Shown piece after piece: positions 31,740 to 47,471 of a DNA stretch of 64,000 nucleotides. Numbering within the stretch: position 1 is the stretch's first letter; every line of letters starts with the position of its first letter. Made by a program: the position numbers and the translations under genes. This DNA comes from Solen grandis. Taxonomy: Eukaryota > Mollusca > Bivalvia > Adapedonta > Solenidae. The notes below the pieces were generated by a model. The model was not told the origin of the DNA. It did not search any database and saw only the letters and a list, made by a program, of their open reading frames with translations. Where the stretch lies: the NCBI GenBank assembly GCA_021229015.1, contig CM037795.1:13425193-13489192 (forward strand), read 5' to 3'.

Positions 31740-31980
31740 AGTAGTATAGGGTGGCACTATGGTACCAAGGTACCATAATTTTTTTTTTTTTATGGTACCG
31801 TGGTACCATAAATTTTTTTTTTTTTTTGGTACTTATGGTACCGAATCTATAGTACCGAATGGTACTCTATATGAAAACAGATTTATGTCTTAAAGGAGGA
31901 CCACATCTTAACATTGACAATTGTAAAAATGTCCTTTCGAGACATTTGGGTTGGCCCTGAAAAGGGCCGTTTTGTTTCTT
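31740..31980 (+). repeat. Polinton left terminal inverted repeat
   Basis: About 241 bp. The outer part contains near-palindromic blocks 'TATGGTACCAAGGTACCATA' and 'TATGGTACCGTGGTACCATA' separated by poly-T. The inner part holds 'GTACCGAATGGTACT' and ends with the histone-type stem-loop (31953-31968). The match to the right end stops after 'GTTTCTT'. Confidence 0.92.
31953..31968 (-). terminator. Histone-type 3' stem-loop, gene 1
   Basis: On the minus strand it reads GGCCCTTTTCAGGGCC: a 6-bp stem with loop TTTC. It starts 14 nt after the TAA of the 119-aa gene. A-rich 'AAACAAAAC' precedes it and 'AACCCAAA' follows, as in replication-dependent histone mRNAs. A purine element GAAAGGACA lies about 14 nt further on (about 31933-31942). 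Confidence 0.75.
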
Positions 31981-31982
31981 CT

Positions 31983-32342
31983 TTAGATTTCGGTGACATT
32001 GTCCACATCGTGCTTGGTTTCAGTGACATCGTGTTCATCGTCACTGATTACGATGACATCGTTTTCATCTTGTAACATCTGCTGTTGTTCTATGAGCATG
32101 TGATCTTCATCTTCATCTTGTTGCTGTTGTCTCAACATCTCCTGATGTTCCATGAGCATATAGGCATCATGTTCATCGTGTTGCATCATCTGTTGTCTCA
32201 ACATCATCTGATGTACCATGTTTGACAAAACCAGATGGTATTCTGCAATATGGTCTTGCTGTTGTCTCCACTCATTGCGTTGTCGTTCGATCAACCCCAT
32301 CAATTCGTGGACAAATTCATTCAGTTGCTGAATTTGTTCCAT
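31983..32342 (-). CDS. Gln-rich coiled-coil protein with SUMO-interaction-like motif
   Basis: 119 residues, unrecognised as a family. The N-terminal two thirds is a Gln/Met/Glu-rich helix likely to form a coiled coil (MEQIQQLNEFV, then QQQ and QMM runs). Near the C-terminus, ENDVIVISDDEHD has the form of a SUMO-interacting motif: a four-residue hydrophobic core followed by Ser and acidic residues. The ATG at 32342 is preceded by TATAAAA at 32386-32392. It ends in the left inverted repeat with a histone-type stem-loop. It is the outermost gene at this end. A regulatory or host-interaction role is inference. Confidence 0.65.
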   Translation of the reverse strand: MEQIQQLNEFVHELMGLIERQRNEWRQQQDHIAEYHLVLSNMVHQMMLRQQMMQHDEHDAYMLMEHQEMLRQQQQDEDEDHMLIEQQQMLQDENDVIVISDDEHDVTETKHDVDNVTEI

Positions 32343-32385
32343 GGTTGTGCAGTGAGAATATGACCGAATGCTTGATGCGGTGCGC

Positions 32386-32392
32386 TTTTATA
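32386..32392 (-). promoter_or_regulatory. TATA box of the 119-aa gene
   Basis: TATAAAA on the minus strand, about 44 nt upstream of the ATG. It is part of a module duplicated at 33703-33862. Confidence 0.7.
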
Positions 32393-32512
32393 GCCTTGAG
32401 GCGGATTGACCTACTTTTTATTTCTATTCAATGATTCAAGTTTAACCTTGACCTGAGTTGGATAGCATTGCCTTTGGCCTTGACATTGGGGTGGATTGAC
32501 CTACTTTTGTAT
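32386..32512 (-). promoter_or_regulatory. Promoter module A
   Basis: It shares with module B (33703-33862), in the same order: the TATA box; 'CTTGAGGCGGATTGACCTAC'; 'CAATGATTCAAGTTTAACCT' (diverged in B); 'AGTTGGATAGCATTG' ; 'GGCCTTGACATTGGG' ; and a second 'GGATTGACCTACTTTT'. The repeated TGACCTA is AGGTCA on the minus strand. Confidence 0.7.
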
Positions 32513-32746
32513 TGACATATCAGAATTGCTGTAAAATTAAAAACATTTCAAGCCGAATTTGTAGTAGTGATGACTTTTTTTTTTTGTAACATTTTTTATT
32601 TTTGTAACATTTTTGTAACATTTTTGTAACATTTTTGTAAACTTTTTATAAAACATTGGATCATATTTTTAATGAAAGAAAATTTGAATGGAATTTGAAA
32701 ATAATGGTGACAATTGAGGTATATTCTCTTTCGAGACATTTGGGTT

Positions 32747-32762
32747 GGCCCTGATAAGGGCC
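32747..32762 (-). terminator. Histone-type 3' stem-loop, gene 2
   Basis: GGCCCTTATCAGGGCC on the minus strand, loop TATC (U kept at loop positions 1 and 3). It starts 24 nt after the stop of the 98-aa gene. The downstream purine element here contains AAAGAG (32726-32731), the canonical core of the U7-binding element. Confidence 0.7.
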
Positions 32763-32786: not shown

Positions 32787-33083
32787 TTACTCATGATTGT
32801 CTGTGAGTTTCTTCAGCAGGTATTCAACATGTTCTATGGTGATGAAATGTGCTTCAATGATATTTAAGATATCATCGTAGTATAGTTCATGAAAGTAACA
32901 TGCACTCAATTTGTCTATGATACTCCTGAGTGTTGTTGTTATTTTAAGCGTACGTTGGTATCGGGCTTGTAGTTTAAGCGAACGTTGGTGTCGGGCTTCT
33001 ATTTTGTCCATGTCAGATATGCAGTCGTTAGTTATATGTGACTTATCCATAGCACAGTCTGAAAACGAATGGCATGAATTCAT
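32787..33083 (-). CDS. Small Polinton protein, function unknown
   Basis: 98 residues, not recognised. An internal near-repeat 'ARHQRSLKLQ / ARYQRTLKIT' lies at about residues 30-49, followed by predicted helices ending LLKKLTDNHE. A TATA-like TAAATAAAAG lies about 10-25 nt upstream of the ATG, close for a TATA box. The gene ends with a histone-type stem-loop and sits between two genes of the same class, which supports its being real. Confidence 0.5.
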   Translation of the reverse strand: MNSCHSFSDCAMDKSHITNDCISDMDKIEARHQRSLKLQARYQRTLKITTTLRSIIDKLSACYFHELYYDDILNIIEAHFITIEHVEYLLKKLTDNHE

Positions 33084-33167: not shown

Positions 33168-33181
33168 GTTGTTTTTTTTCT

Positions 33182-33667
33182 CTACTTCTTACTCTTTTTG
33201 CAATTTTGTATGTCTTTACAATGGGCTCCAAGTCCAGTCTTAGAATGGGATCCACCATCATGCGGACGTTTGTTGGATGCTTCCACATTTTCCGGAGTGA
33301 AAGTGATAGGCACCACCAGCTTGTCTGTTTTCATTTTGATACGGCATTCCACTTCTACCATTCTCTTTTGCAATTTGATGAGGTTGTTGTTCACCTCTTT
33401 GAGTTCCCTCAGAATAGATTGTCCAACATTATTTACTGGCTGCGCTGCCGGTTGCTGTTGCACTGGTTGTTGCACTGGTTGTTGTTGCTGTACTGGTTGC
33501 TGCTGGTGTGGTGGAGGCTGAGGTTGATACGTTGGTTGGTAGCTGGGTTGGTACACCGGAGTCGGAGTGTACGACACTGATGCCTGGTTAGCAGCTGTCG
33601 TCAGCTCATACAAATCAGCAGCCTGTATGGCGTTGTTAACGAGATCAGAAGTTACGTAGCTTTCCAT
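33182..33667 (-). CDS. Pro/Gln-rich protein, function unknown
   Basis: 161 residues. A short N-terminal helix (MESYVTSDLVNNAIQAADLY) is followed by a low-complexity Pro/Gln/Tyr region (about 33-80) of YQP and QQPVQ repeats. A coiled-coil-like segment (about 83-112, ILRELKEVNNNLIKLQKRM) and a basic C-terminus (KKSKK) complete it. Such a layout suits a scaffold or DNA/RNA-binding adaptor, but no family is recognised. TATAAAAG lies 36-43 nt upstream of the ATG. It is transcribed divergently from the RING gene. Confidence 0.6.
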   Translation of the reverse strand: MESYVTSDLVNNAIQAADLYELTTAANQASVSYTPTPVYQPSYQPTYQPQPPPHQQQPVQQQQPVQQPVQQQPAAQPVNNVGQSILRELKEVNNNLIKLQKRMVEVECRIKMKTDKLVVPITFTPENVEASNKRPHDGGSHSKTGLGAHCKDIQNCKKSKK

Positions 33668-33702: not shown

Positions 33703-33862
33703 CTTTTATAGTCTTGAGGCGGATTGACCTACTTTCTACTGTTAGCGTACACCAATCAGAGAACGTTATTTTTTCATCCAATGAATCAAGTTCGACCTTG
33801 ACCTAAGTTGGATAGCATTGTCTTCGGCCTTGACATTGGGATGGATTGACCTACTGACCTAC
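33703..33862. promoter_or_regulatory. Divergent promoter module B
   Basis: It lies between the 161-aa gene (minus) and the RING gene (plus). The TATAAAAG for the minus gene is 33703-33710. Compared with module A it has about 32 extra bases holding CCAAT (about 33752-33756). The distal part has two AGGTCA half-sites spaced by two bases (minus strand, about 33846-33859). Confidence 0.65.
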
Positions 33863-33914: not shown

Positions 33915-34178
33915 ATGTCTGAACAAAACCTCTGGTTCGAAAAGTGTGGTGTGTGTTTAGAGGAGAGGGAGGAGGATATATATCACATAAACCAGTGTCA
34001 ATGTCAGGACATTGTATGCGTCAGATGCTTCGCACGGCTTCAAAAGTGCCCGTTTTGTAGGGCACCCTATCAAGTGTATGCCTGGCCTGCCTGTGTTTTC
34101 GCTAAACATGGGCCTACAGTGCGCTCAGCCTATTATGGCATATGGTTTGACCCTGATTATTCAGAGTTAGTAGGGTGA
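33915..34178 (+). CDS. Small RING-finger protein
   Basis: 87 residues, almost entirely a RING domain: CGVC (about 13-16), QCQC (about 29-32), CVRC (about 37-40) and CPFC (about 47-50). The position usually held by His in C3HC4 RINGs is Cys, so it is an all-cysteine form. RING proteins usually recruit an E2 for ubiquitin transfer. Viral and transposon RINGs often act on host regulators, but a target cannot be read here. It is one of only two plus-strand genes in the element, has its own TATA box, and carries a histone-type stem-loop 34 nt after the stop. Confidence 0.85.
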   Translation: MSEQNLWFEKCGVCLEEREEDIYHINQCQCQDIVCVRCFARLQKCPFCRAPYQVYAWPACVFAKHGPTVRSAYYGIWFDPDYSELVG

Positions 34179-34309: not shown

Positions 34310-34315
34310 TTTATT
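34310..34315 (-). terminator. Polyadenylation signal for the structural gene cluster
   Basis: AATAAA on the minus strand, about 95 nt downstream of the protease stop. It contrasts with the stem-loops used by the accessory genes. Confidence 0.55.
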
Positions 34316-34409: not shown

Positions 34410-35009
34410 TTAATGAAAGTAGAATGGGTCCAAACTATTCGTCAGTAATTCAAAACACGCACGACCATCTCCAAACTTTGGTGGATGTTTAGCTGTGCAT
34501 GTTTGTTGGTGCTGATTACACACTTGTCTTCTTGCACGTTTGTACAGTTCTGAATAGTTCTGGTAAAACCAACATCCCACATTGGAATCGTTCAAATTGA
34601 AGTGAGGTTGATCCTCTGTCCGGAATTTAGCTCTAAACACCCGTGTTAAATCACATCCTCGAACAAGAAAATGCAAAGCAAACAAACAATATGCTCCACA
34701 CACAAACGTGTTGTATCCTTGAAGTCTCATGAGATTCCATGTATAGGGTCCATGTCTTTCCAAGAAACGTTGAATGTCACAATGGAGTGGGTTTTGTCCA
34801 TACGAATCAAAGTAGTAAGTCGATTTATCGTTGAAAAACACAACCACCCAATGTTCACCAGGTTGAGTCGAATTGTGGGTATTCACTATGTAAGCTTTTA
34901 CAGTCTCTGGTCTACGTTGTGGTAGTTGATCTTTAGCACATACCACGGCATTCAAGGGAGCTAGAATTGGTGAATGATCCAAAATATACTGCAACTCAAT
35001 CGTTTCCAT
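34410..35009 (-). CDS. Adenain-like cysteine protease (PRO)
   Basis: Clan CE (adenovirus protease/Ulp1) fold. Numbering from an in-frame Met 14 residues upstream, the catalytic set is His67 (GEHWVV), Asp82 (YYFDSYG), Gln111 (LQGYN) and Cys118 (FVCGAYC). The order and spacing fit adenain. METIELQYIL at 35009 is preferred as start because it overlaps the upstream gene less. In adenoviruses and Polintons this enzyme cleaves virion precursors during maturation. It follows the 150-aa gene with a 14-base overlap and ends the structural cluster, before the AATAAA signal. Confidence 0.93.
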   Translation of the reverse strand: METIELQYILDHSPILAPLNAVVCAKDQLPQRRPETVKAYIVNTHNSTQPGEHWVVVFFNDKSTYYFDSYGQNPLHCDIQRFLERHGPYTWNLMRLQGYNTFVCGAYCLFALHFLVRGCDLTRVFRAKFRTEDQPHFNLNDSNVGCWFYQNYSELYKRARRQVCNQHQQTCTAKHPPKFGDGRACFELLTNSLDPFYFH

Positions 35010-35448
35010 TTTCCCAATCTTGTTTAATGCGTCCTGCCCATTCGCACTCAAAAGCTTCCAATGGTGTGATCTTGTTCGTATCTACACTAGCCTTTATATT
35101 TGCCCACATCTGATAAGCATCAGCTTTCTCAGCGCGTGTGAGATCCATGTTTTGTAGTTCAGCGTACCATCTTTCCATCACTTGATACATGTCCAGTTTT
35201 TTTAATGCACTGTTCAGAAACATCTCGACCCACTCACTTTTACTGCTAAACAAACATATGGGATGTTGGGTCTGACTGGGATGATCAACAATGCAACCAT
35301 AACAGTTTTCTTTCACGATATCAAAGAGGTGTGTCTGCAGTTCATGCACCACATGCTGGTTCAAACTCTTTACCATATCGTTTCGCCTATTCAAGTTGTA
35401 GATTTCTTCGTACAGTTGTTTGGCCAGCTGTTGTCCTGATTTGCTCAT
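34996..35448 (-). CDS. Polinton protein between protease and major capsid, unknown
   Basis: 150 residues, mostly helical. It has MSKSGQQLAKQLYEEIYNLN at the start and Cys/His residues in ENCYGCIVDHPSQ. I do not recognise a family. Tight placement between capsid and protease genes (2 bases after the major capsid stop side, 14-base overlap with the protease) suggests a virion assembly role, by position only. Confidence 0.65.
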   Translation of the reverse strand: MSKSGQQLAKQLYEEIYNLNRRNDMVKSLNQHVVHELQTHLFDIVKENCYGCIVDHPSQTQHPICLFSSKSEWVEMFLNSALKKLDMYQVMERWYAELQNMDLTRAEKADAYQMWANIKASVDTNKITPLEAFECEWAGRIKQDWENGND

Positions 35449-35450
35449 GG

Positions 35451-36755
35451 TTAATAGTCTGTGATGACTTCTCTGAACCCGTTAATCTCTATCTGACTGT
35501 CATATTCGGCATACACAATCACATTGATGGGGTCACCAAGAGCTGCACGAAACTGAAGCTCGATTCGCAAGTTTCCCGTTTTTATAGGATGCAGCTGTCC
35601 CTCTTCTGATCCTTGATCTGGCGTTAAGTCAATGCCCCACAGTGTGTACCCCTGCATGTAATCGTTCATTGTCAGACCCATGGAGCGGTTTAAACCGAGT
35701 GATCCCGTGGCTTGATGCAGGGACATGTATGATCTCAAAATTTCTCCTGTGGGAAAGTTAGGCTGGAACGGCAAGTTGTGTGTCGTCTTTCCGTCTACAC
35801 TGACTTCTAACTTAGACAAGTTGAAATGTTGAAAATCAAATGGGTTGGTTGCCAGATCACCGTTCATGTCTGTATTCTTTACCAGGCCCAGAATGATACG
35901 TTTGGGTAACTGTCCTTGAAATAAATGATCTTCGATCTTTGATCGCTGGCCTGCAGGAATGGTGAAAGTTTTTACCTCAGCTCGGCGAATTGGGATCTTC
36001 ATGCCATGTTGAGCGATGGTCTGGTTTAAGTTGTTGGCCACTACGGGTAACAGGTCAACAGTCCGAACATTGAATCCAGCTTGAATTAACTGGATTTTTG
36101 CCTCTTCTCCAAACAGGCAAAAACTGACTGGGTATCTGTTGAGTCGCAGTCTTATCTCTACACCATTGGGAAGGTACTTGTCTTGCAAACACAGATCTAA
36201 ATGCAGACGTCCGCACATTTCCAGAACACGACTCTGGTGGATACGTGTTCTTCTTTTTCTATATCCTTCATTACCTCCCGCAACTGTATGCGCTTGCATA
36301 TGACCCGCCGTGTCAGGACTCCACATTTCCGTAGCGTAGAGCTGTGTTGATTTACTGTCCCTAGAATAAGACAGCAAATTCTCAATGTAGGCCCGGTACG
36401 CATATGTGTCAGCATTATTGGTGATCAGTTTGTTGTTCAGGTACACATCAATACTGCTAAACAAGCTGTGGAAGAAATTATTTACTGTGGATGTTTCTCC
36501 ATCGGCAGCCAGATTAGTGCCATCAGGTTGGACTACTTTGACTTTCAGGTACAAGTAGCTCTGGTTGATATCAGTCCACTTTTCTGATTGAGCAGGAATT
36601 ACAAATTCAATGGGAGATGAATTGCTCAGTGCTGACACAGGATAATGTTCTGTCCACTGTGCATCTTGCATTGCTGTCATGGTAGGTGGGACATGTGTCA
36701 CATCAAGTTCAGTTTTGCTACTCTCACAAGAGCCGTGTTGCATCATGTTGTTCAA
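35451..36755 (-). CDS. Major capsid protein, double jelly-roll
   Basis: 434 residues. The N-terminal segment PIEFVIPAQSEKWTDINQSY, then VNNFFHSLFSSIDVYLNNKL, and a C-terminal LRIELQFRAALGDPINVIVY match the conserved blocks of Polinton/adintovirus hexon-like proteins. These form pseudo-hexameric trimers on icosahedral shells. Length is at the short end for the family, but both jelly-roll halves appear present and the frame is intact. It directly follows the pVI-like gene on the minus strand (stop to start with no gap). No TATA box is evident just upstream, so it is probably co-transcribed with the minor capsid gene. Confidence 0.9.
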   Translation of the reverse strand: MNNMMQHGSCESSKTELDVTHVPPTMTAMQDAQWTEHYPVSALSNSSPIEFVIPAQSEKWTDINQSYLYLKVKVVQPDGTNLAADGETSTVNNFFHSLFSSIDVYLNNKLITNNADTYAYRAYIENLLSYSRDSKSTQLYATEMWSPDTAGHMQAHTVAGGNEGYRKRRTRIHQSRVLEMCGRLHLDLCLQDKYLPNGVEIRLRLNRYPVSFCLFGEEAKIQLIQAGFNVRTVDLLPVVANNLNQTIAQHGMKIPIRRAEVKTFTIPAGQRSKIEDHLFQGQLPKRIILGLVKNTDMNGDLATNPFDFQHFNLSKLEVSVDGKTTHNLPFQPNFPTGEILRSYMSLHQATGSLGLNRSMGLTMNDYMQGYTLWGIDLTPDQGSEEGQLHPIKTGNLRIELQFRAALGDPINVIVYAEYDSQIEINGFREVITDY

Positions 36756-37112
36756 TCAAAAATATCTAACGGTCGTGATGAGATTTTTCTTTTTTTGTTG
36801 TGTCTCCTTGACGTGCTGGAAGCAGAATGATGTCGACGTTTGAAATCTCGAAGCTTTATACCTCTCAGAGTTTTCAGACCCACATCTTTCAACATCTTTC
36901 AACAATGTTTTACCCCGTTTCTTGATCACTGTCTTTACATTTTGGCCAGACAGAATATCTTTTACGGCTCCTATACCTTGTTTAAAGCCCTCTCTTTTCA
37001 GAGTCTTTAGTCCTGAGGTCACGATGGGTTTCATCATGGGTAAGATGTTGTTGAACATGGAGCCCAAACCATATCCGACTTGTCGAGCTTGACCACGGTA
37101 AACTGGAATCAT
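36756..37112 (-). CDS. pVI-like small virion protein
   Basis: 118 residues. The N-terminus IPVYRGQARQVGYGLGSMF resembles the 'VYxGxxxQxGxGxG' start of small proteins found between the capsid genes of Polintons and adintoviruses. These are compared with adenovirus pVI, a membrane-active maturation substrate. A basic C-terminal region follows (KKRGK, TQQKKKN). The ATG overlaps the TGA of the minor capsid gene (ATGA). The pVI comparison is by position and motif only. Confidence 0.7.
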   Translation of the reverse strand: MIPVYRGQARQVGYGLGSMFNNILPMMKPIVTSGLKTLKREGFKQGIGAVKDILSGQNVKTVIKKRGKTLLKDVERCGSENSERYKASRFQTSTSFCFQHVKETQQKKKNLITTVRYF

Positions 37113-37951
37113 CGTGTCTTTCTTTTAAAATGAAGCTTCACCATCGACTTCCCGTGAGTGAAATGAACTGATTCCCCTGTGTCACCGGTTATATTGATAC
37201 TGATCTCTTTGAAATATGATCTGCTGACAGGTATGTAGTGTAGATTTAGAAATTCAAAGTGCATGTGTGGATTAGCCCCTGCTTTTGTTTTTGTGGCAAA
37301 TGGCACAACGCGTAAAATGGGTGCTTCGACATCCCCTATCAAAGTGTGTTCTGCCAGATCGGTATATACAAACAAATGGTTCATCTTCGTGAAGAGGTCC
37401 ACACCGTACTTGAATCTGCTGTTGTCTCTGTCCGGAAACACCACAGTACTTCCCTCTCCTCCAAGTTTCGTAAGGAGGATTGGATGAAGTTCCAAGCCGA
37501 TCTTTGATCCAGTATTACCGGTAAACTTGACACGTTTTGACAAGCCGGAAAAATCAAGTCCAAATGTGAGGTTTCTTTGAGTTAAAATTGTCTTAGTGGC
37601 TTGTTTAATAGCCTTGTCCATTTCGTCAGTGAGATGTTGTGGTGACGCATAGATGCCTGCAGGAATGCAAAGGGGTAATGCCCATTTTTTGCCTTCTAAT
37701 TCACACCCGTTTTTCACTTGTGAAAAGGCTGCCGCCAGTTCTGGATCTTTAGTCACGATGTAGAATTTTCCTTCCTCCTCTTCAATGTTTCTGACTTGTG
37801 TGGGAACGATCATTTCCACGAGAGCAACTTCCCAATTTTGTTTGTCGACATCAATGGTTTTTGTCAGCTTGGTTCTAAAACAGCATTGTGTGTTGTTTGG
37901 GTACAATGCCATCGAACTATCACTGATGAGAGTGATGTAGAAAGAATTCAT
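37109..37951 (-). CDS. Minor capsid (penton) protein, single jelly-roll
   Basis: 280 residues. The start MNSFYITLISDSSMALYPNN and the following KTIDVDKQNWEVALVEM block are the signature of Polinton penton proteins (a short strand, then 'DLxxxWEVALxE'). The middle has predicted beta segments, and the end is basic (HFKRKTR). Penton proteins fill the five-fold vertices. The start overlaps the 82-aa gene (ATGA) and the stop overlaps the pVI-like gene (ATGA), indicating a compact late unit. Confidence 0.88.
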   Translation of the reverse strand: MNSFYITLISDSSMALYPNNTQCCFRTKLTKTIDVDKQNWEVALVEMIVPTQVRNIEEEEGKFYIVTKDPELAAAFSQVKNGCELEGKKWALPLCIPAGIYASPQHLTDEMDKAIKQATKTILTQRNLTFGLDFSGLSKRVKFTGNTGSKIGLELHPILLTKLGGEGSTVVFPDRDNSRFKYGVDLFTKMNHLFVYTDLAEHTLIGDVEAPILRVVPFATKTKAGANPHMHFEFLNLHYIPVSRSYFKEISINITGDTGESVHFTHGKSMVKLHFKRKTR

Positions 37952-38196
37952 GATTTCTTAAATTTTAAACTTGGGTTTGGAAGAATGTATCCGATAGAAG
38001 TACTCATCAGCAGCAACCAAAGTTCACGATCTGGACTGTTGAGACACAGGTTCACTAATGACACGATGACAATGATAAAGATGATCACAATCTGTGTCAA
38101 GAAAGTGATTCTGTTGTTTGGTACCTCACTTTTTCCTGTCTGTATACTGTTGTCTACCTGAACACTGCTGGTATCGGACTGAGACATGCTGTTCAT
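37948..38196 (-). CDS. Small membrane protein
   Basis: 82 residues. A polar N-terminus of about 28 residues precedes a strong hydrophobic segment FLTQIVIIFIIVIVSLVNLC (about 30-49) and a second, weaker one (LWLLLMSTSIGYILP). No family recognised. A small transmembrane frame in this position, between integrase and penton, is common in Polintons. Two TATAAA hexamers sit at 38201-38213, close to the ATG. Confidence 0.65.
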   Translation of the reverse strand: MNSMSQSDTSSVQVDNSIQTGKSEVPNNRITFLTQIVIIFIIVIVSLVNLCLNSPDRELWLLLMSTSIGYILPNPSLKFKKS

Positions 38197-38208
38197 GACG
38201 TTTATACT

Positions 38209-39303
38209 TTATACTAAATGCGATTTTGGAATCCAACTGTTAAACTTTTTAGGATATCCAAGCCACTTGACTTTCACTTCTTGAAAAGTTTTACCGCCTA
38301 CACGCCTTGTACGCCGATCAAGAACTGATTCCACTTCGTATAGCTCATCATCTTTTATATGTTGAATTTCATCCCTGTAGAAGGATCCGGCGATAGTTTC
38401 TCCAGCCAAGTCTTCCAGTTTTACGGTCAATGGATGTGTTCTGTTGATGCGAACCACTTTGAACAATTCCACTGTCCAGTTGGGTAGATAGCCTTTGGCA
38501 AATGTTTGCTTGGTTTTATTGATGCGCACTATATCACCCACTTTCAAATCAGTTGATTTCTTTTTTTTCTTTTGATGGTTGCCATATAATGTCTTGGTGA
38601 CTTCATGCTCATTTTCTCTAGACACAGATGCAGGGGTACGTCCGATGCTTCGATGAAAACGATGATTGTAGCCATGTACCAATAGTTGCAGTACATCCAC
38701 ATAATGACGGGTCTTGTGATGAGTAAAATATTTCCACATTCTTGATTTAAGCGTACGTTGAAAACGTTCAACAATACTCGCTTTAGTTTCTGGGTTTTCA
38801 GACGTGAAGAAATGAATGTCATGCTTGTCTAGAAACTTCTGAAAGTCTTTGTTAAAAAATTCTCGGCCTTTGTCTGTTTGCAAAGAGAGCGGTTTTCGGC
38901 CTTCTTTTAGAATAGACTGAAAGGCTTGGATGAGCGTCTTTCCAGTTTTGTCAATGATGGGTATTACCCAAGCATATTTTGAAAACACATCAATGACACA
39001 TAGTAAGTAGCGATATGGTGAATTCTCTTTGTACATACGTTGCATATCTGCGAGATCAGCTTGCCATTGATGATCGATACCTCCTACCACAGTCTGTCGA
39101 CGTCGAAATTTTCGTCGTATTGTTTTATGCAACGTGTAGGTTCTTTGACTTCTCAACCAGTCTCGTACATCCTCTAAAGTGATAGATTTCAACTGTTTTT
39201 TCGCTGCCTTGTAGAGTCCCTGAATTCCTCCAAAACTCGTAGGAATATCAGTATCATAGTACAGGTGACGAAGTAACGTGTCCTTCTTTAGTAGGCGTCC
39301 CAT
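38209..39303 (-). CDS. Integrase with C-terminal chromodomain (INT)
   Basis: 364 residues of retroviral-type (rve) integrase. The catalytic triad is Asp83 (QADLADM), Asp144 (LQTDKGREF) and Glu179 (SIVERF); 34 residues separate the last two. The SH3-like region around DLKVGDIVRINKT (about 252-264) is followed by a chromodomain (about 321-364, YEVESVLDRR ... VKWLGYPKKFNSWIP). Integrase joins Polinton ends to target DNA and makes 6-bp duplications, as seen here. The chromodomain may bias insertion to marked chromatin. The frame is intact. Confidence 0.95.
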   Translation of the reverse strand: MGRLLKKDTLLRHLYYDTDIPTSFGGIQGLYKAAKKQLKSITLEDVRDWLRSQRTYTLHKTIRRKFRRRQTVVGGIDHQWQADLADMQRMYKENSPYRYLLCVIDVFSKYAWVIPIIDKTGKTLIQAFQSILKEGRKPLSLQTDKGREFFNKDFQKFLDKHDIHFFTSENPETKASIVERFQRTLKSRMWKYFTHHKTRHYVDVLQLLVHGYNHRFHRSIGRTPASVSRENEHEVTKTLYGNHQKKKKKSTDLKVGDIVRINKTKQTFAKGYLPNWTVELFKVVRINRTHPLTVKLEDLAGETIAGSFYRDEIQHIKDDELYEVESVLDRRTRRVGGKTFQEVKVKWLGYPKKFNSWIPKSHLV

Positions 39304-40375: not shown

Positions 40376-40408
40376 GATGACAAATGATGATGAAATGTTT
40401 GGTCTCTT

Positions 40409-40534: not shown

Positions 40535-40566
<32 letters not shown>

Positions 40567-41317
40567 GCCCACTTGAAGAATTGGAAAGGTCAAACAATTG
40601 TCGTCGAACTGTAGGGTTTGGTGAAACCGTCATTGATCCTTGTGGTGTAGCCAACCCAGACCTCATCGAACTTCTGTTAGAACGGGGAGTAGATGAGGTC
40701 AGTGGAGAGAATTGGGCCACAAGTGGTGATGCTTTGGATGTTGTCCCTGATGTAACATCACGTCGAATCAGTATGGGGGACACTTTTGGTGTTCCAGTTG
40801 ATACAGAGCGTTTTCTTCTTACAGTGACAAATCGATCATGAGGCAATGTCTGCTTCTTCCTTGTTTGTTTCCTTACTGGTGACTTGCGTTTGGTTGGCTG
40901 TTTTCGTGGTTGTTGTCGTGACCGTTTCCTGGCTGGTGACTTTCGTTTGGGTGGTTGTTTTCTTGCTACTGGACCAAATTTTCTCACAGCTTTGGTCCCG
41001 TTCCATCGAAGCAGTGTACGAATGATGGTGCCCCCAAGGAAACCTCCACCGCCAGGTTTTAAAATAAGTTGTCGTTTTGTGGTCAGATCCACATGTTGAT
41101 CAGCTAACTGTCTTAAAATGTCTTTGTTGCGTTCCATAAAATTCATCGTCTGTTTTGGCACGGTTACTTTTTTCTCTAAGATGAGTCGTGCAGCTAAGGT
41201 GAACCATTTTACCATCTCTGTTAATCCTGATTCTACCAGCTCTTGTCGTTTCGTTGGGTTCTTTTCCCGACTCAACGATAATAGAGCTTTGATCACTGTA
41301 TGTGGTGTGTTTTCCAT
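40409..41317 (-). CDS. Large basic, Ser-rich core-type protein
   Basis: 302 residues. The first ~95 residues end ILRQLADQHVDLTTKRQLIL then KPGGGGFLGG, matching the LRQLA...GGFL core of the 118-aa neighbour. A protamine-like basic region (about 118-160) repeats KRKSPARK and KRKSPVRK. A Ser/Arg/Pro-rich tail contains a Ser run (about 253-263) encoded by a trinucleotide repeat (about 40535-40566). Nucleic-acid condensation in a virion, as for adenovirus core proteins, is inference. TATAAA sits 46-51 nt upstream of the ATG (41363-41368), overlapping the ATPase stop. Confidence 0.65.
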
Positions 41318-41363
41318 GGTAGGTGTATCCTTAATGATGATCGGGTGTCATGTTCCTGTCATT

Positions 41364-42014
41364 TTATACTGTAGTGTAGACGATCGGTCCTCGATCTTCA
41401 CCTGTTACCCACCGATGGAACACATCTGTTCTTAAACGATTCTGGTCGGGTGTTCTTGGATGAAAGTCAATGATAAGATATCCATGAGGTGTAGAGGTTG
41501 CATCTTGATACGCCATCACCAAATAGGATAGTTGTATTTGGTTCGCAAGTGTTTTGATCTGGCCTTTATCTCTTGTGTTTTGAAATAATACCATGTAGTG
41601 TGCATTCAAGCTGATGGTACGACTAGCCTTGGATTGTTGGAACATGTTTTGTGTGATGTAAATGACAGTGGCATTTCTATGGTGTCCCTTTCGCGTGAAC
41701 CATAATTTAATTTTCTCCTCATCTTTTTCTCCTAACATATCATCAAATATGACGAGGTGTGGTAAGGTTGTATCGTCTACTATCTCTTCATCATCCTCAG
41801 GGATACCCTGAATGAATTTGATAGCTTCACGTTCTTGTAACTGTGCGTAGGCACTTTGCCATTCTTTGTAACACCAGACGATGCGTTGTGGTACCACATG
41901 AAATAAATCGGTTTTGTACTCAATAAGTTTTTTTACAAATTGAGTTTTTCCTGAACCACTTGGCCCTGAGATGAAAACGTTACTAGGATGTTGAAAAAGT
42001 AAACTACTTTCCAT
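41364..42014 (-). CDS. A32/FtsK-HerA-like packaging ATPase (ATP)
   Basis: 216 residues from the preferred start MESSLLFQHP. Walker A is GPSGSGKT (17-24), Walker B LVIFDD (87-92), and a sensor-like VIYITQN (117-123) follows. The match is to poxvirus A32/Polinton genome-packaging ATPases, which drive DNA into preformed capsids. An in-frame Met 26 codons upstream (42092) exists, but the residues between are not family-like and TATAAA (42060-42065) lies there, so 42014 is chosen. Confidence 0.93.
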   Translation of the reverse strand: MESSLLFQHPSNVFISGPSGSGKTQFVKKLIEYKTDLFHVVPQRIVWCYKEWQSAYAQLQEREAIKFIQGIPEDDEEIVDDTTLPHLVIFDDMLGEKDEEKIKLWFTRKGHHRNATVIYITQNMFQQSKASRTISLNAHYMVLFQNTRDKGQIKTLANQIQLSYLVMAYQDATSTPHGYLIIDFHPRTPDQNRLRTDVFHRWVTGEDRGPIVYTTV

Positions 42015-42059
42015 GATGGTCCAAGAAATAATAACAGCATTGACATGACAACATTTTAT

Positions 42060-42065
42060 TTTATA
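42060..42065 (-). promoter_or_regulatory. TATA box of the ATPase gene
   Basis: TATAAA on the minus strand, 46-51 nt upstream of the ATG at 42014. It supports this start over the upstream Met. Confidence 0.5.
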
Positions 42066-42099
42066 CATCATAGCAAATAAACACTTGAACAAACATCAG

Positions 42100-42357
42100 T
42101 CAAAAATGTAAACTATGACACACATCATGAATCAGTCTTTCTTTATACATCATCCATTCCGGCAATATCATGGTATATCCCATAGCATTTAAAGCCATGC
42201 ACACTTCGTCAAACAGTTCCTCGGATTGTCTTAACGCCTGTTCTGATTGAATTCCAAGTACACGCACAGCCAACAACACAGCTCTACGCCATGGATTCCG
42301 AATTGGAGTTATGTTTTTTTCCTGTAGTGAAGTATTTCCCATGTTTTGACTTCTCAT
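42100..42357 (-). CDS. Small Polinton protein, unknown
   Basis: 85 residues, helical, with RNPWRRAVLLAVRVLGIQSE and an ILPEWMMYKERLIHDVCHSL end. No domain recognised. The ATG overlaps the stop of the F-box-like gene (ATGA at 42354-42357), supporting translation from a shared unit. Confidence 0.55.
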   Translation of the reverse strand: MRSQNMGNTSLQEKNITPIRNPWRRAVLLAVRVLGIQSEQALRQSEELFDEVCMALNAMGYTMILPEWMMYKERLIHDVCHSLHF

Positions 42358-42974
42358 TCGTCTTGCAAGTACTCTGCGTAGTATCTTATTTTGTAGGTGT
42401 CCCAGAGGGATTCGTCTCCCAACTCAAACCTTTCTAAGTTGTTGAAATTGGGATCTTGAAAGAACTGTTCACTAGGATTTGGCCTCGTTTGTTTGAATAT
42501 TGCGCTGCACTGTTTACCAAAAATGTTAAACACTTGTTCACAAGTGATAGGTTCTGGAGTCAGTAAAATGGCACGTATATCCTCTGGTGTGTCGTTCCGG
42601 TGGTTAATCGCAAATCTGAGATACATACGCTCATCAAAACGGTTCAGTTTCTCCACTGTATCAATGTTTAGGGTATCAATGTATATGTACCACACGTCAG
42701 AGATCAGGTTGCGTAGCAGGTTGTAAATGGCAAAAATCCGTTGAAAGACCACACTTTTATAGCTGCTTGGAAGATTACGCCCTCGTACATCACTAAACAT
42801 ATCATAAACTTGGTTTAAACAAGAGGAATCCTTCATCGTCTGGTGAATTATTCTGTTTCCAACGCGCTGTGCCCAAGTAAAAAATAACTCGTTGCAAAAT
42901 GCAGCAGGTTTCTTATTAGCTTCAACGAGATGTCTGTAGATCATCTGTTGTATTTCTACTGGTAGAGTGTTCAT
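42354..42974 (-). CDS. F-box-like protein
   Basis: 206 residues from the chosen start MNTLPVEIQQMIYRHLVEAN, which fits the first helices of an F-box (LPxEIxxxIxxHL). The remainder is helical and unrecognised. The frame is open for 52 codons upstream but those overlap the polymerase gene, so the F-box Met is preferred; it leaves 61 bases after the PolB stop. F-box proteins link substrates to SCF ubiquitin ligases. With the RING gene, this would be a second link to host ubiquitin. The match is short, so caution is due. Confidence 0.55.
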   Translation of the reverse strand: MNTLPVEIQQMIYRHLVEANKKPAAFCNELFFTWAQRVGNRIIHQTMKDSSCLNQVYDMFSDVRGRNLPSSYKSVVFQRIFAIYNLLRNLISDVWYIYIDTLNIDTVEKLNRFDERMYLRFAINHRNDTPEDIRAILLTPEPITCEQVFNIFGKQCSAIFKQTRPNPSEQFFQDPNFNNLERFELGDESLWDTYKIRYYAEYLQDE

Positions 42975-43035
42975 CGTGAATCTCCGTATGTTTCCACCAC
43001 CGTTCAGGCTATGCACACGACCACAAGCCAACTGG

Positions 43036-46000
43036 TTATGACGGTTGGTAACCGTACGGCACTGTCTTATATTTGTCCACGACCACGCGTTTTGTATACA
43101 CTGAGCGGAATGTCTTGGTCTGTGTCTCACTGATCACTTTGCGATTTCTATGTCTCTTGATTCGGGATTCATATTCGATGACTGTCTTGTAATGTTTGCG
43201 ATCTTGTACACAGTTGACCATAGTCTTAAAATTGACTTTTTGACTAGCATTGTAATCCAAAGTGATGCCTTTTACTTTGCATTTCTGATGTCGATTTCCT
43301 TTTTCATCGATATATTCATACCCATAGTTTTTTGGCCCTAATGCCACGAATTTGACAATGCGTCCATGTGGTACTTCATCTGTCCACTTTCCCAACTGGC
43401 TCTCTTCAATTCGAATGTTGTACTGGTCAGGGTCATAGATGTACATACAACTGTCTGTGTCAAAATACAGTACCCGATCTCCAAGTTTTTCCAACTGGGT
43501 GTAAAGTTCAAGTCGAGCATAGGACGTAACGAAGGCAGCTACCACTGGATTTGAAGATGAATGGGGCTGTGTTGCGTCTGTTTCATCCGAGTAATTCACC
43601 AACATGAAGTTGTCATGATCGAAAATCTCGGCAAACTGCACAGTGACATGACGGTCGGAGAGTAGGTCATACAACCGGTTCACCTTAGTCACATACTCGG
43701 TTTTGGTTTGAACATTGTTTTGTGCATTCTTACCCCACAAACAGTTCAACATGGTTTTGGCAAACGCTCTTTTTCCTTTGTTCTTTTTCACGTTGTCGAG
43801 CCAGATACCCTCTATCTGAAAGTAATTCTGTTTAAAGCGGGCTTCATCATCTTCTGTTTTTACCCAATTAGGGTAACCACTTGCTTCTTGTTTCAATTTC
43901 AAGTATTTGTTAATATACTGTTTATACACATCTTTACTCCATGTGTCCCAGTGCCAGATGTGGAAGACGTCTACCAATTGGTATCCTACCTCAAGAGCTT
44001 TGGCTATTTCCACATGGGTCCAGGTACCTGTCAACATGCGTTTGTACAGAGTGTGATTGCATTTTTCACACTCTTCCTCAGCACAGGTACGGCACAGTGT
44101 AAAGATCATTTTCTTGTTACAGTGAATAGGTAGGACTGGTAGCCACAGGTCTTGTGGTGGCAATACACGACATTTGATGAGTCCCTTGTACATTCCAATG
44201 TTGTTTATATCAATCATCTCTTGACTTAAGATGTCGGGATGTCCCACGGGGTATGCTTTGTACTTGTTCACGAATGGATACAGTGTGCAAATGTCAGCAT
44301 ACTTAATTTCTTCCTTGGTGGTTGTATCCACTTCATGGTATAATTGAACGGCATTGGTTCGTCCACCAAACAAAGCATCCCGAGGTAAAATAGGTTCTTG
44401 GAAGGGAAAGAAACGGTTCACAGTATCTCTGTATTCTGGTTCAATCTTGCATTTCTGATCAAAGTCACATTCCCACATTACAACTGTGTTGTAACCTTGT
44501 TGAGACAAGTCTTTCAACCGAAAAGTTGTGGCATTGTATAACTGCTCCATAGTTTTAAGTGTGTAACCGTTCACACTGTCTCTCCTTGGGTAACATTTTG
44601 GACATCCATGTGTCCAGCACCCCATGAATTCGTATACGGTGTTCGTCTCTTTGTGGAATCCGTCAACGTAATAGGGTCCAATTTGTACTTCACCTCCATT
44701 TAATGCATGGCGAATGTGCTTATTCTCAATGGAAGCAGTTGTTTCTATCCAACGAATCCCTTTGATTGAGTATCGAGTTTTGTTTGGATACCCGTCATCA
44801 GAGATTACAGCCAAGGTCTTTGGAGGCATTGAATTTTTACGCCAAGCTTTGTTGCACACTTGAGCTAGAGTGGTCGCTTCCAAGAACGGATCAATTTGGT
44901 CACTGGCCAACAGTTCTTTCCTAAACTCTCCACAACCTCGTCTCAAGATGTCCACATCTGATTTGCAGTACTTTTGCATTTCTAACTGAAAGTGAAACAC
45001 AGCCTTTTGTGCCACTTTTGCATTGTACCATTTCAGAAACGCTTCTCTCTTGTCAGGTTTCATGCTGTCGGGTCTGTAAAAATGTACGGGGAGATAGTCT
45101 CCAATGTAGTCTTGGTATTCATCCGTGTTGGCATAAAATGGAAACCATCCTTTTGCCATCTCAGTCAATCCATACGTGTCGGGGAAATCGGACAAAGGCA
45201 TGTTGAGAAAACTCAGTGAGTCGATGAATCTCACTTGATGGGCTTTCATCATTAGAATTTTGCTTCCATTCATGATCAATTTTGGTTTGGCTGTATCATG
45301 TGTCAGTAAGTGCCTCAAAATAAACTGTGCATCGTATCCTTGTGAGTTGTGAGCAATCACTGTGGTACCTTTGTGACTGGGTTGAAACAGCCATGTACAA
45401 AATTCTGACAAAGTGTTGTTACCACGAAATATTTTTTCTCTAGGCTCATCCACAGCTTCGCATTTCTGACACGGGTTTTTCATGGATTGACACATACAGT
45501 CTCCACAAGCACGTTGAGCAACACAAAAGTTTGGTATATGTTCACCCAAATCAAATCGACACTCAAAGTCAAAGAAGATGAAAGGTACAGTCGGTGACTT
45601 CATGTTCTCTGGTTCTTTGTACGTGGGGATATAACACTGATGTTCTGCATCCACAACTTTCTTGCAATACTTGCATTTTTTAGTGCCAGGACAGAGATTG
45701 TTCTTCTTTGTACCCACAACCATTTGACCACAGGTCTTGCATTGCCATACACTTTCACAGATGTTTTTTGTAGATTTTCCTGGTTTCGCTTTGTGCTGAT
45801 CAAAGCATTTCTGACTATGAAATGTTCTACCACAGTGACCACATGGAAAGAATCCTTCTTTTGGGCATAGTGTCAAGGCGTAACACAGACAAATATTCCT
45901 ACACCAGTGAGCTTCTCTGTTGTTATAACCGTAGTTACAGTGTTCACAGAAGTAGCTGCATCCCAGGAAACCAGTGATTGGTGTAATGCAATCATAATGT

Positions 46001-46716
46001 TTATCATGATGATAAATGTGAATAACTTTGCTTTTGTCTGTCAGAGGTGGGTGATTGAACAACACGTCCATTTTCTCAAATTGTGGCCACACTTTGATCA
46101 CATAGTCTGGATAAAGGTGGGCTTGAATCTTCTTGTATTCTTCTATACCACAAGGCTGATTTGGACTAATGCCCACACTATCTAACAATGTCTTGGCTTC
46201 TTGGCTTTGAAGAAATTTTGCAGATTGTCTCATCAAATTCCATCGCTTCTTCCAGGCTGTATCGTCCGTTTTATTGAGTTTACATATCCCTACCACAATT
46301 GATCGTGCCAAACACATACTGTCGTGAACATTGTCTATCTTTATCATACTTCGTTTGACTTTGGACATGTTCTCAATGCTTAGGTGCGATCCAAACGTTC
46401 TTTTTGTTCTTCCACCTCCCTCGGGCATAATGACATGTGTCATTTCTAACTGGAGATGCCCGTCATGAATCTCAAACTTGTGGTTGCTTTGTGATACTTT
46501 CTCTATTTCGTTCAACAGCGTATCTCCTGAAATGTGTGTTGCATTCCCGAATGGAATGTGGATACCAAATGCTAGGTCAGGATGATTTATGGAGATACGA
46601 ATTTGATCGTTGTCATTGACCCGTGCTTCTCTGTATAATTGTTTCACCATGTCATTGAAAAGTTGATGTGTAAATTCAAACGGTTTTTTATATCTTTCAA
46701 ATGTAACATCGTACAC
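43036..46716 (-). CDS. Protein-primed family B DNA polymerase with OTU-like N-terminal region (PolB)
   Basis: 1226 residues. Exonuclease motifs: FFDFE (D383/E385), AHNSQGYD (N457/D462), YCKSD (Y583/D587). Polymerase motifs: A, DICTLYP (808-814); B, KTMLNCLWGK (987-996); C, YFDTDS (1084-1089); and KNY (1129-1131). Between the N-terminus and the exonuclease lies a region with DSMCLARS (Cys135) and DKHYDC (His240), like the OTU-type cysteine protease domain fused to some Polinton polymerases. Several zinc-knuckle-like Cys/His clusters follow (257-361). It replicates the element from a protein primer at the terminal repeats. A minus-strand TATAAA is at about 46789-46794. The frame is intact. Confidence 0.96.
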   Translation of the reverse strand: MYDVTFERYKKPFEFTHQLFNDMVKQLYREARVNDNDQIRISINHPDLAFGIHIPFGNATHISGDTLLNEIEKVSQSNHKFEIHDGHLQLEMTHVIMPEGGGRTKRTFGSHLSIENMSKVKRSMIKIDNVHDSMCLARSIVVGICKLNKTDDTAWKKRWNLMRQSAKFLQSQEAKTLLDSVGISPNQPCGIEEYKKIQAHLYPDYVIKVWPQFEKMDVLFNHPPLTDKSKVIHIYHHDKHYDCITPITGFLGCSYFCEHCNYGYNNREAHWCRNICLCYALTLCPKEGFFPCGHCGRTFHSQKCFDQHKAKPGKSTKNICESVWQCKTCGQMVVGTKKNNLCPGTKKCKYCKKVVDAEHQCYIPTYKEPENMKSPTVPFIFFDFECRFDLGEHIPNFCVAQRACGDCMCQSMKNPCQKCEAVDEPREKIFRGNNTLSEFCTWLFQPSHKGTTVIAHNSQGYDAQFILRHLLTHDTAKPKLIMNGSKILMMKAHQVRFIDSLSFLNMPLSDFPDTYGLTEMAKGWFPFYANTDEYQDYIGDYLPVHFYRPDSMKPDKREAFLKWYNAKVAQKAVFHFQLEMQKYCKSDVDILRRGCGEFRKELLASDQIDPFLEATTLAQVCNKAWRKNSMPPKTLAVISDDGYPNKTRYSIKGIRWIETTASIENKHIRHALNGGEVQIGPYYVDGFHKETNTVYEFMGCWTHGCPKCYPRRDSVNGYTLKTMEQLYNATTFRLKDLSQQGYNTVVMWECDFDQKCKIEPEYRDTVNRFFPFQEPILPRDALFGGRTNAVQLYHEVDTTTKEEIKYADICTLYPFVNKYKAYPVGHPDILSQEMIDINNIGMYKGLIKCRVLPPQDLWLPVLPIHCNKKMIFTLCRTCAEEECEKCNHTLYKRMLTGTWTHVEIAKALEVGYQLVDVFHIWHWDTWSKDVYKQYINKYLKLKQEASGYPNWVKTEDDEARFKQNYFQIEGIWLDNVKKNKGKRAFAKTMLNCLWGKNAQNNVQTKTEYVTKVNRLYDLLSDRHVTVQFAEIFDHDNFMLVNYSDETDATQPHSSSNPVVAAFVTSYARLELYTQLEKLGDRVLYFDTDSCMYIYDPDQYNIRIEESQLGKWTDEVPHGRIVKFVALGPKNYGYEYIDEKGNRHQKCKVKGITLDYNASQKVNFKTMVNCVQDRKHYKTVIEYESRIKRHRNRKVISETQTKTFRSVYTKRVVVDKYKTVPYGYQPS

Positions 46717-46788
46717 GTGGCCATTCGTTTTAAACTTTCTTGAAGTTCTCTGTGACCGTGGCTGTATGGAATAATATTCCCGTATATC

Positions 46789-46794
46789 TTTATA
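46789..46794 (-). promoter_or_regulatory. TATA box of PolB in divergent promoter
   Basis: TATAAA on the minus strand, 73-78 nt upstream of the PolB ATG. It lies in the ~105-bp spacer shared with the plus-strand 112-aa gene. Confidence 0.45.
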
Positions 46795-46821
46795 TCATAC
46801 TTTATTATTCATGATTGAAAC

Positions 46822-47160
46822 ATGAGACCGTACACACGTAGGTCCACCCCAGACTTGCTAAAATTGTTCCTCGACAATCCCAGCTATGAGGAACAAGAGA
46901 GCGACCCAGACAGCTATCACGACCAAGTTGATGTGTATGATCTATATCTCACTCTTATAAAAAGGGGAGATCTCCCTAATTACCTGTCAGTTACCTTTGA
47001 AGATGTACCATCTACCCTACTACAGGGATCGGGAGTCAGCCTGAACTTCATAGGTGACAAGGATCTAACCCGTTGTCATTTGCATCTCCTTGCAGGATGG
47101 ATGAAGAGATATGTCCTGGGATGGGACTGTCAAACGTGTGGTATAGACCACAATATGTGA
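46822..47160 (+). CDS. Right-end Polinton protein, unknown
   Basis: 112 residues, unrecognised. Acidic in the first half (DNPSYEEQESDPDSYHDQVD), it ends DCQTCGIDHNM with a CxxC. Its last codons are tandemly duplicated after the stop (47118-47156 versus 47157-47195). It is divergent from PolB, the outermost gene at this end, and followed by a histone-type stem-loop that lies in the right terminal repeat, mirroring the 119-aa gene at the left end. Confidence 0.6.
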   Translation: MRPYTRRSTPDLLKLFLDNPSYEEQESDPDSYHDQVDVYDLYLTLIKRGDLPNYLSVTFEDVPSTLLQGSGVSLNFIGDKDLTRCHLHLLAGWMKRYVLGWDCQTCGIDHNM

Positions 47161-47197
47161 TGGGACTGTACAACATGTGGTATGGACCACAATTAAT

Positions 47198-47471
47198 AAG
47201 AAACAAAACGGCCCTTTTCAGGGCCAACCCAAATGTCTCGAAAGGACATTTTTACAATTGTCAATGTTAAGATGTGGTCCTCCTTTAAGACATAAATCTG
47301 TTTTCATATATAGTACCATTCGGTACTATAGATTCTGTTTTCATATAGAGTACCATTCGGTACTATAGATTCGGTACCATAAGTACCAAAAAAAAAAAAA
47401 ATTATGGTACCACGGTACCATAAAAAAAAAATTTATGGTACCTTGGTACCATAGTGCCACCCTATACTACT
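47198..47471 (-). repeat. Polinton right terminal inverted repeat
   Basis: About 274 bp, the reverse complement of 31740-31980. The main difference is a ~34-bp tandem duplication around 'TAGTACCGAATGGTACT' present only on this side. Poly-T lengths also differ. Confidence 0.92.
47210..47225 (+). terminator. Histone-type 3' stem-loop, 112-aa gene
   Basis: GGCCCTTTTCAGGGCC on the plus strand, 49 nt after the stop. Flanks are AACAAAAC and AACCCAAATG, followed by CGAAAGGACAT (47239-47249), 13 nt from the stem. Confidence 0.75.

What the first reader, a model, noticed from the sequence alone, without database searches (positions are those of the whole stretch)
31953..47225. Histone-mRNA-type 3' stem-loops behind five Polinton accessory genes
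Seen: a 16-nt hairpin GGCCCTTTTCAGGGCC (one copy with TTATC) occurs five times in the element, always just downstream of a stop codon and always in that gene's orientation: 31953-31968, 32747-32762 and 33152-33167 (minus), 34213-34228 and 47210-47225 (plus). It lies 14, 24, 14, 34 and 49 nt after the stops. Known: metazoan replication-dependent histone mRNAs end in a 6-bp stem starting GG and ending CC, with a 4-base loop keeping U at positions 1 and 3, an A-rich 5' flank and an ACCCA-like 3' flank. All of this is present. SLBP binds this structure and the mRNA is not polyadenylated. Inference: these genes use host histone 3' processing, giving S-phase-limited expression timed to DNA replication. 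I know of no description of this for Polintons.
Basis: partly seen in the sequence, partly recalled or inferred. Interest (0 to 1): 0.93.

Follow-up and report, generated by a model that had tools for sequence, protein, structure and literature searches.

The report
Clam mobile element copies histone-gene signals
A virus-like mobile element in a clam-type genome ends five of its small genes with the RNA tail signal that animals use for histone genes, and two of these genes also share a histone-type promoter motif, which suggests that the element times them to host DNA replication.

Summary
Five hairpins GGCCCTT(T/A)TCAGGGCC lie 14-49 nt after the stops of five accessory genes of a 15.7-kb Polinton (31740-47471), each in its gene's orientation. 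A covariance model built only from seven host histone 3' ends ranks the five first in the window (43.9-60.3 bits; next 16.6). Each is followed by a U7-type purine element and CAATTGT at host histone spacing. In 12 other Polinton loci the cassette follows 29 of 32 accessory homologues and 0 of 49 core homologues. New here: two of the genes share GTAGGTCAATCCG plus TATA with host H2A/H2B promoters. Most likely these genes use host U7 snRNP/SLBP processing and histone-type transcription, giving S-phase-linked, non-polyadenylated mRNA (inferred). Caveats: no RNA data; no U7 gene found; Rfam scores sit just below the curated cut-off; two of the five copies are one terminal-repeat sequence; one genome, one element family.

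The parts
31740..47471 (.). Polinton element, 15,732 bp, ends AGTAGTATAGGG...CCCTATACTACT, terminal inverted repeats about 241 bp (left) and 274 bp (right)
   Evidence: Pfam DNA_pol_B_2, rve, Chromo, Pox_A32 over cut-off, Peptidase_C5 weak
31734..31739 (.). left target-site duplication CACGTG
47472..47477 (.). right target-site duplication CACGTG
60961..60966 (.). single CACGTG of the empty site in the duplicated flank
31911..31973 (-). histone-type 3' cassette of the 119-aa ORF (stem 31953-31968); in the left terminal repeat
   Evidence: R1 60.3 bits; RF00032 31.0 bits
32704..32767 (-). histone-type 3' cassette of the 98-aa ORF (stem 32747-32762, loop TTATC variant)
   Evidence: R1 52.7 bits; RF00032 28.8 bits
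33108..33172 (-). histone-type 3' cassette of the 161-aa ORF (stem 33152-33167)
   Evidence: R1 55.0 bits; RF00032 31.7 bits
34208..34271 (+). histone-type 3' cassette of the RING-like ORF (stem 34213-34228)
   Evidence: R1 43.9 bits; RF00032 32.1 bits
47205..47267 (+). histone-type 3' cassette of the 112-aa ORF (stem 47210-47225); in the right terminal repeat
   Evidence: R1 60.3 bits; RF00032 31.0 bits
31983..32342 (-). accessory gene, 119 aa
   Evidence: no Pfam family at E 0.1
32787..33083 (-). accessory gene, 98 aa
   Evidence: no Pfam family over cut-off
33182..33667 (-). accessory gene, 161 aa, P/Q-rich
   Evidence: no Pfam family over cut-off
33915..34178 (+). accessory gene, 87 aa, RING-finger-like
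   Evidence: zf-C3HC4_3 E 1.9e-4, under the curated cut-off
46822..47160 (+). accessory gene, 112 aa
   Evidence: no Pfam family at E 0.1; only weak antibody-chain matches in PDB, best E 0.19
32403..32414 (-). promoter motif GTAGGTCAATCC(G) with a TATA box 22 nt from its start, upstream of the 119-aa ORF; a second copy without TATA at 32493-32504
33721..33732 (-). same motif with a TATA box 22 nt from its start, upstream of the 161-aa ORF; a second copy without TATA at 33843-33854, in the region shared with the RING-like ORF
34410..46650 (-). core gene block on one strand (PolB, ATPase, integrase, capsid candidate, protease candidate and others), no histone-type cassette
34310..34315 (-). AATAAA 95 nt after the last core gene

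Best explanation
Five accessory genes of this Polinton are built like host replication-dependent histone genes. Each carries the host histone 3' cassette: an A-rich flank, an SLBP-type stem-loop, a cleavage region, a purine element of the kind that U7 snRNA pairs with, then CAATTGT. Two of the genes (119- and 161-aa ORFs), perhaps a third (RING) through a shared upstream region, also carry the motif GTAGGTCAATCCG just upstream of TATA, as host H2A and H2B do. Shown: the sequence features, their gene-by-gene and strand-specific placement, and their match to host histone signals. Inferred: host U7 snRNP and SLBP cleave these transcripts a few bases after the stem, giving non-polyadenylated mRNAs made and kept mainly in S phase, so that accessory proteins peak when host replication factors are available. 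The outward-facing pair in the terminal repeats would also stop read-through into flanking DNA. The core block probably uses ordinary polyadenylation.
For: Model R1 from seven host histone 3' ends only: the five sites are the top five in 64 kb, 43.9-60.3 bits, next 16.6 bits at E 0.25. Alignment with H1, H2A, H2B, H3, H4: stem, purine element and CAATTGT line up. CAATTGT and CGAAAG each occur at 1.7e-4 per position in the window; CAATTGT is at five of five sites, CGAAAG at four of five (RING has CGAGAG). In 12 other Polinton loci the cassette lies behind 29 of 32 accessory homologues (20 of 23 without the hits by which the loci were found) and behind 0 of 49 core homologues. 20 RING copies sampled from 150 found by protein, not by hairpin: R1 match in 20 of 20, 19 at 36 bits or more. 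The 119-aa, RING and 112-aa ORFs have no AATAAA/ATTAAA within 250 nt, the first and last none up to the element end. Promoters: TAGGTCAAT occurs 4 times in the window, all upstream of accessory genes, 0 times in 105,674 bp of background and 0 in the core. Shared 10-mers with five host histone promoters: 9 and 12, against maxima of 7 and 11 in 1000 first-order shuffles and 8 in 478 host-flank windows. No histone coding sequence was found in the window or in 19 further loci.
Against: No transcript or protein-binding data. All five sites score under the RF00032 gathering cut-off, although cassettes of other Polinton copies exceed it (37.0-38.6 bits at L005, L014, L016, L017). No U7 snRNA gene was found, though few candidates were scored. 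The 98- and 161-aa ORFs have AATAAA/ATTAAA 80-187 nt downstream, so some transcripts could be polyadenylated. The promoter motif is absent before the 98- and 112-aa ORFs and before host H3, and at word lengths 8 and 9 the promoter excess is weaker (1-3 of 478 flank windows reach it at 8, 1 of 1000 shuffles at 9). Copies in this genome are one family, about 77-98% identical outside gaps, so likeness between them is weak evidence of selection. No second species could be tested.
Confidence: 0.86

Rival explanations
1. The hairpins are DNA elements or simple terminators of the transposon itself (for example cruciforms for replication or integration) and only resemble histone stems.
For: Two copies sit at the inner edge of the terminal repeats.
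Against: They are always in the gene's orientation, with a purine element and CAATTGT at host histone spacing; 0 of 49 core homologues have one; two of the genes share promoter sequence with host histone genes.
Confidence: 0.05
2. SLBP binds the stems but the mRNAs are mostly polyadenylated further on; the stems serve translation or stability, as a mixed 3' end.
For: The 98- and 161-aa ORFs have poly(A) hexamers 80-187 nt downstream.
Against: The 119-aa, RING and 112-aa ORFs have none within 250 nt; a purine element for U7 is kept at all five.
Confidence: 0.07
3. The cassettes were captured once from a host histone gene and are carried along without current use.
For: The cassettes of the 119/112-, 98- and 161-aa ORFs are near-copies; copies in the genome are one family, and 3 of 20 sampled RING copies have a damaged stem.
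Against: 17 of 20 sampled RING copies keep an intact stem; the RING cassette differs from the others outside the motifs yet keeps stem, purine element and CAATTGT; the cassette is behind 29 of 32 accessory homologues.
Confidence: 0.04

Closest known systems
Metazoan replication-dependent histone genes (Rfam RF00032; U7 snRNP/SLBP 3' processing)
   Same: Stem, loop, ACCCA-like flank in four of five, purine downstream element, single-exon ORFs, TATA promoters; a promoter motif shared with host H2A/H2B in two genes
   Different: The genes encode non-histone accessory proteins of a virus-like element. PMC2781718 (2009; passages) says SLBP had never been implicated in direct regulation of genes other than histone genes; PMC12166091 (2025; [quoted passage not shown]
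Polinton/Maverick elements of bivalves
   Same: Core genes, terminal inverted repeats, 6-bp target-site duplication; capsid candidate 72% identical to a Mercenaria mercenaria protein
   Different: Histone-type gene ends and promoters have, in my ten paper searches, no listed precedent for Polintons
In-silico RF00032 hits in RNA viruses (PMC7786107; passages)
   Same: A Histone3 match reported in a viral genome
   Different: There 14.7 bits inside a coding region; here five full-length matches of 28.8-32.1 bits behind stop codons, and 43.9-60.3 bits with a host-trained model

Membership tests
Metazoan histone 3' end (RF00032) | 6-bp stem GG...CC with a 4-nt loop that has U at positions 1 and 3 | tested here: met
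   five of five
Metazoan histone 3' end (RF00032) | score at or over the curated gathering score of 34 bits | tested here: not met
   28.8-32.1 bits at the five sites; cassettes of other copies reach 37.0-38.6
Metazoan histone 3' end (RF00032) | purine-rich downstream element after the stem | tested here: met
   CGAAAG in four of five, CGAGAG in RING, aligned with host histone genes
Metazoan histone 3' end (RF00032) | pairing of the downstream element with the host U7 snRNA | tested here: inconclusive
   no U7 gene found
Metazoan histone 3' end (RF00032) | same signal as in the host's own histone genes | tested here: met
   host-only model R1
Metazoan histone 3' end (RF00032) | no poly(A) signal near the gene end | tested here: inconclusive
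   none within 250 nt in three of five genes, present in two
Metazoan histone 3' end (RF00032) | mature mRNA ends a few bases after the stem, without poly(A); S-phase expression; SLBP binding | not testable with these tools
   no RNA data
Replication-dependent histone gene | encodes a histone | tested here: not met
   no histone match in the window; Pfam
Polinton/Maverick | family B DNA polymerase, rve integrase, A32-type ATPase | tested here: met
   DNA_pol_B_2 E 5.6e-38, rve 2.3e-13, Pox_A32 3.9e-6, all over cut-off
Polinton/Maverick | adenovirus-type protease | tested here: inconclusive
   Peptidase_C5 E 0.0064, under cut-off
Polinton/Maverick | major capsid protein | tested here: inconclusive
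   431-aa ORF: no Pfam family, 398 homologues at E 0.001, named uncharacterized where named in the 120 listed; no fold made
Polinton/Maverick | terminal inverted repeats and 6-bp target-site duplication | tested here: met
   with the empty site in the same window

The most novel reading that the evidence does not exclude
The accessory genes form a histone-mimic regulon: host histone promoter logic plus host histone 3' processing, so that a virus-like DNA element runs its accessory programme on the host's replication-dependent histone clock. At least two further non-histone gene families in the same genome (a 114-aa Cys-rich ORF and an SGNH-type repeat ORF) carry the same 3' cassette, which would make this a route open to mobile DNA in general.
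Probability: 0.6. Interest if true: 0.95.

Novelty: new variant of a known kind. Interest (0 to 1): 0.87.

Why it matters
The histone-type 3' end is known as a mark of histone genes. Its use, together with a histone-type promoter motif, by a virus-like element would show a new way for mobile DNA to couple gene expression to host DNA replication and to do without poly(A) tails. It makes the question of when animal Polintons are active directly testable, and it would explain why standard poly(A) RNA libraries could miss these transcripts.

Tried and rejected
A second species: viral contigs pattern (0 matches); PolB, integrase and capsid-alignment scans of viral contigs (none confirmed); capsid alignment in genome contigs (one 33-residue match in a bacterial MAG, L051, not pursued). 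U7 snRNA: RF00066 in the own genome gave nothing (65 of 388,410 candidates scored; none of the control genomes rang either, so it proves no absence); a pattern recalled from U7 (Sm-type site behind CTTTC) gave 33 hits against 57 for the reversed control, and 12 of the 33, fetched, held no credible U7 (one RF00066 match of 14.3 bits, cut-off 34). I first took the low protein identities of other copies (about 30-50%) as deep divergence; nucleotide comparison showed one family, about 77-98% identical outside gaps, with many indels, so that argument was dropped. Cassette against downstream identity (cassette higher in 21 of 22 comparisons) is only indicative, since flank alignments drift. The 114-aa ORF of L001 found no homologue. 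In one search four patterns with IUPAC letters went to a plain regex, so their zero counts are void; only CAATTGT and CGAAAG are used.
Full report
WHAT IS THERE. The five hairpins exist as described, 14, 24, 14, 34 and 49 nt after the stop codons. The element is a Polinton of 15,732 bp, 31740-47471, ending AGTAGTATAGGG/CCCTATACTACT, with CACGTG on both sides; a duplicated copy of the flanks in the same window has a single CACGTG at 60961-60966, so the empty site is visible. It has a family B polymerase, an integrase with chromodomain, an A32-type ATPase and a weak adenovirus-type protease match. Its 431-aa capsid candidate is 72% identical to an uncharacterized Mercenaria mercenaria protein and about 43% to oyster ones (best 120 of 398 listed). 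The host is therefore most likely a bivalve near Mercenaria (inference); the genome held is 1.32 Gb in 811 contigs.

THE 3' CASSETTE. Rfam's histone stem-loop model covers all five sites end to end with 28.8-32.1 bits and E 6.5e-6 to 1.1e-4, but below its gathering score of 34. To ask the question in the host's own terms I located histone genes of this genome: 52 RF00032 matches among 75 candidates scored of 260,318, with H1, H2A, H2B, H3 and H4 recognised by sequence upstream of stems. From these I took seven 3' ends, one per gene and cluster. Each has the stem, a short spacer, a purine element and then CAATTGT (four of seven), CAGTTGT (two) or, in H2A, a shifted AATTGT, about 28-32 nt after the stem. 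The five Polinton sites have the same parts in the same order, CAATTGT in all five at 29-31 nt. A covariance model from those seven host ends alone puts the five sites first in 64 kb, at 60.3, 60.3, 55.0, 52.7 and 43.9 bits; the next hit has 16.6 bits, E 0.25. Its function is unknown to me.

INDEPENDENCE. The copies at 31953 and 47210 are one sequence at the inner edges of the terminal repeats. The cassettes of the 119-, 112-, 161- and 98-aa ORFs are near-copies; that of the RING ORF differs outside the motifs but keeps stem, purine element and CAATTGT. So the element holds about two sequence lineages of the cassette.

WHICH GENES. None of the core genes, all on the minus strand between 34410 and 46650, has a cassette; the last one has AATAAA 95 nt downstream. 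19 loci of 8-10 kb around RF00032 hits were scanned with R1; 12 of them have Polinton matches by tblastn, 7 do not. In the 12, a cassette lies within 200 nt behind 29 of 32 accessory homologues, or 20 of 23 when the hits that brought the loci in are left out, and behind 0 of 49 core homologues; three PolB rows without enough sequence beyond them were dropped. One of the 29 (161-aa homologue in L050) was assigned to the neighbouring gene's cassette. The three misses are 119-aa homologues in L040, L041 and L050. To avoid choosing by hairpin, 20 of 150 RING copies found by protein were sampled down the list: R1 matches in 20 of 20, 19 at 36 bits or more; by eye 17 have an intact stem, one (L060) has lost it, one (L058) has a mismatch in it and one (L059) a single-base deletion.

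THE PROMOTERS. Upstream of the 119- and 161-aa ORFs lies GTAGGTCAATCCG with a TATA box 22 nt from its start; host H2A has it with TATA at 21 nt, and host H2B of two clusters, in one with one mismatch, at 33 nt. TAGGTCAAT occurs four times in the window, all here, and 0 times in 105,674 bp of background and in the core. This motif was picked by eye, so an unguided test was made: shared 10-mers with five host histone promoters are 9 (upstream of the 119-aa ORF) and 12 (between the 161-aa and RING ORFs), against maxima of 7 and 11 in 1000 first-order shuffles and 8 in 478 host-flank windows; the region before the 112-aa ORF shows no excess (1; 509 of 1000 shuffles reach it). With 9-mers 1 and 0 of 1000 shuffles and 0 of 478 flank windows reach the two values; with 8-mers 0 and 2 of 1000 shuffles and 1 and 3 of 478 flank windows do. 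With up to one mismatch the motif GTAGGTCAATCC is in 11 of the 12 Polinton loci (not L045) and in 0 of the 7 others. It is absent before host H3.

MECHANISM. In animals the stem-loop is bound by SLBP, the purine element is targeted by U7 snRNP, and a single cleavage between them makes a non-polyadenylated end, with expression tied to S phase (passages of PMC2781718 and PMC5011920). The five Polinton genes have the sequence parts that this needs. The best reading is that they are processed, and some of them transcribed, as histone genes and so peak in S phase. For the 119-aa, 112-aa and RING ORFs no poly(A) hexamer lies within 250 nt; for the other two one lies 80-187 nt on, as a possible back-up. 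No histone coding sequence was found in the window or in 19 further loci, so these are not histone gene fragments.

LIMITS. No RNA data were available. U7 was not found. One genome only. The copies compared are one family, about 77-98% identical outside gaps; low protein identities largely reflect indels. Copy numbers are lower bounds: 608 and 1275 first-look candidates, 150 and 131 scored, for RING and a PolB piece.

LITERATURE. Ten paper searches were answered, in open-access PMC text only; two searches found no paper, and only the top 12 of 22, 15 of 18, 10 of 228 and 15 of 67 were listed. No listed title or abstract start describes a Polinton, transposon or DNA virus with histone-type 3' ends. 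I saw passages of PMC7786107, PMC2781718, PMC5011920, PMC6713331 (a reference-list entry only) and PMC8905726, and the abstract and outline of PMC12166091. Two bear on the claim: PMC7786107 reports a weak Histone3 match (14.7 bits) in SARS-CoV-2, a warning about weak hits, and PMC12166091 reports that SLBP binds SARS-CoV-2 frameshift RNA, so SLBP and viral RNA have met in print in another way. PMC8905726 lists Maverick elements at 1.69% and 1.93% in its two columns. Subscription papers and preprints were not searchable, so priority is not proven.

Noticed in passing
window 27466-31739 and 47472-51141, against 56713-63793: The flanks of the element recur further along the window at 97-99% identity with the element missing: a duplication with one filled and one empty site, so the insertion looks recent.
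   Followed up: partly
window 27637-29922 and 56883-59168 (-): Two 761-aa ORFs in the duplicated flanks; the first has leucine-rich repeats and a TIR domain, the second was not scanned.
   Followed up: partly
L031:4453-4971 and L032:4538-5062: A 114-aa Cys-rich ORF of unknown family bears the histone-type cassette (R1 50.5 and 38.6 bits); L031 also holds an ORF with a Helicase_C match just under cut-off, so perhaps another virus-like element.
   Followed up: partly
L033, L034, L035, L049 near 4780-5035: A repeated SGNH/GDSL-like ORF family (Lipase_GDSL E 7.4e-5, just under cut-off) bears the histone-type cassette (R1 34.7-47.7 bits).
   Followed up: partly
L046:4853-4918 (-): A strong cassette (R1 54.8 bits) at no recognised histone or Polinton gene.
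   Followed up: partly
host histone arrays G000:C3:50.91-50.96M and C1:50.506-50.517M: CAATTGT or a close form follows the purine element in the seven histone 3' ends examined; its role is unknown.
   Followed up: partly
window 31983-32342 (-): The 119-aa protein has an acidic tail with VIVISDDE that looks like a SUMO-interacting motif (recalled, not tested), in an element that also has a RING-like gene.
   Followed up: no
window 52747-53476 and 55659-56235: Tandem repeats of about 161 and 145 bp in the host flank.
   Followed up: no
G000, matches: 150 RING copies at 97% identity or more, 149 of 150 without stops, and 131 PolB-piece copies at 96% or more among those scored: a highly amplified family.
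   Followed up: partly
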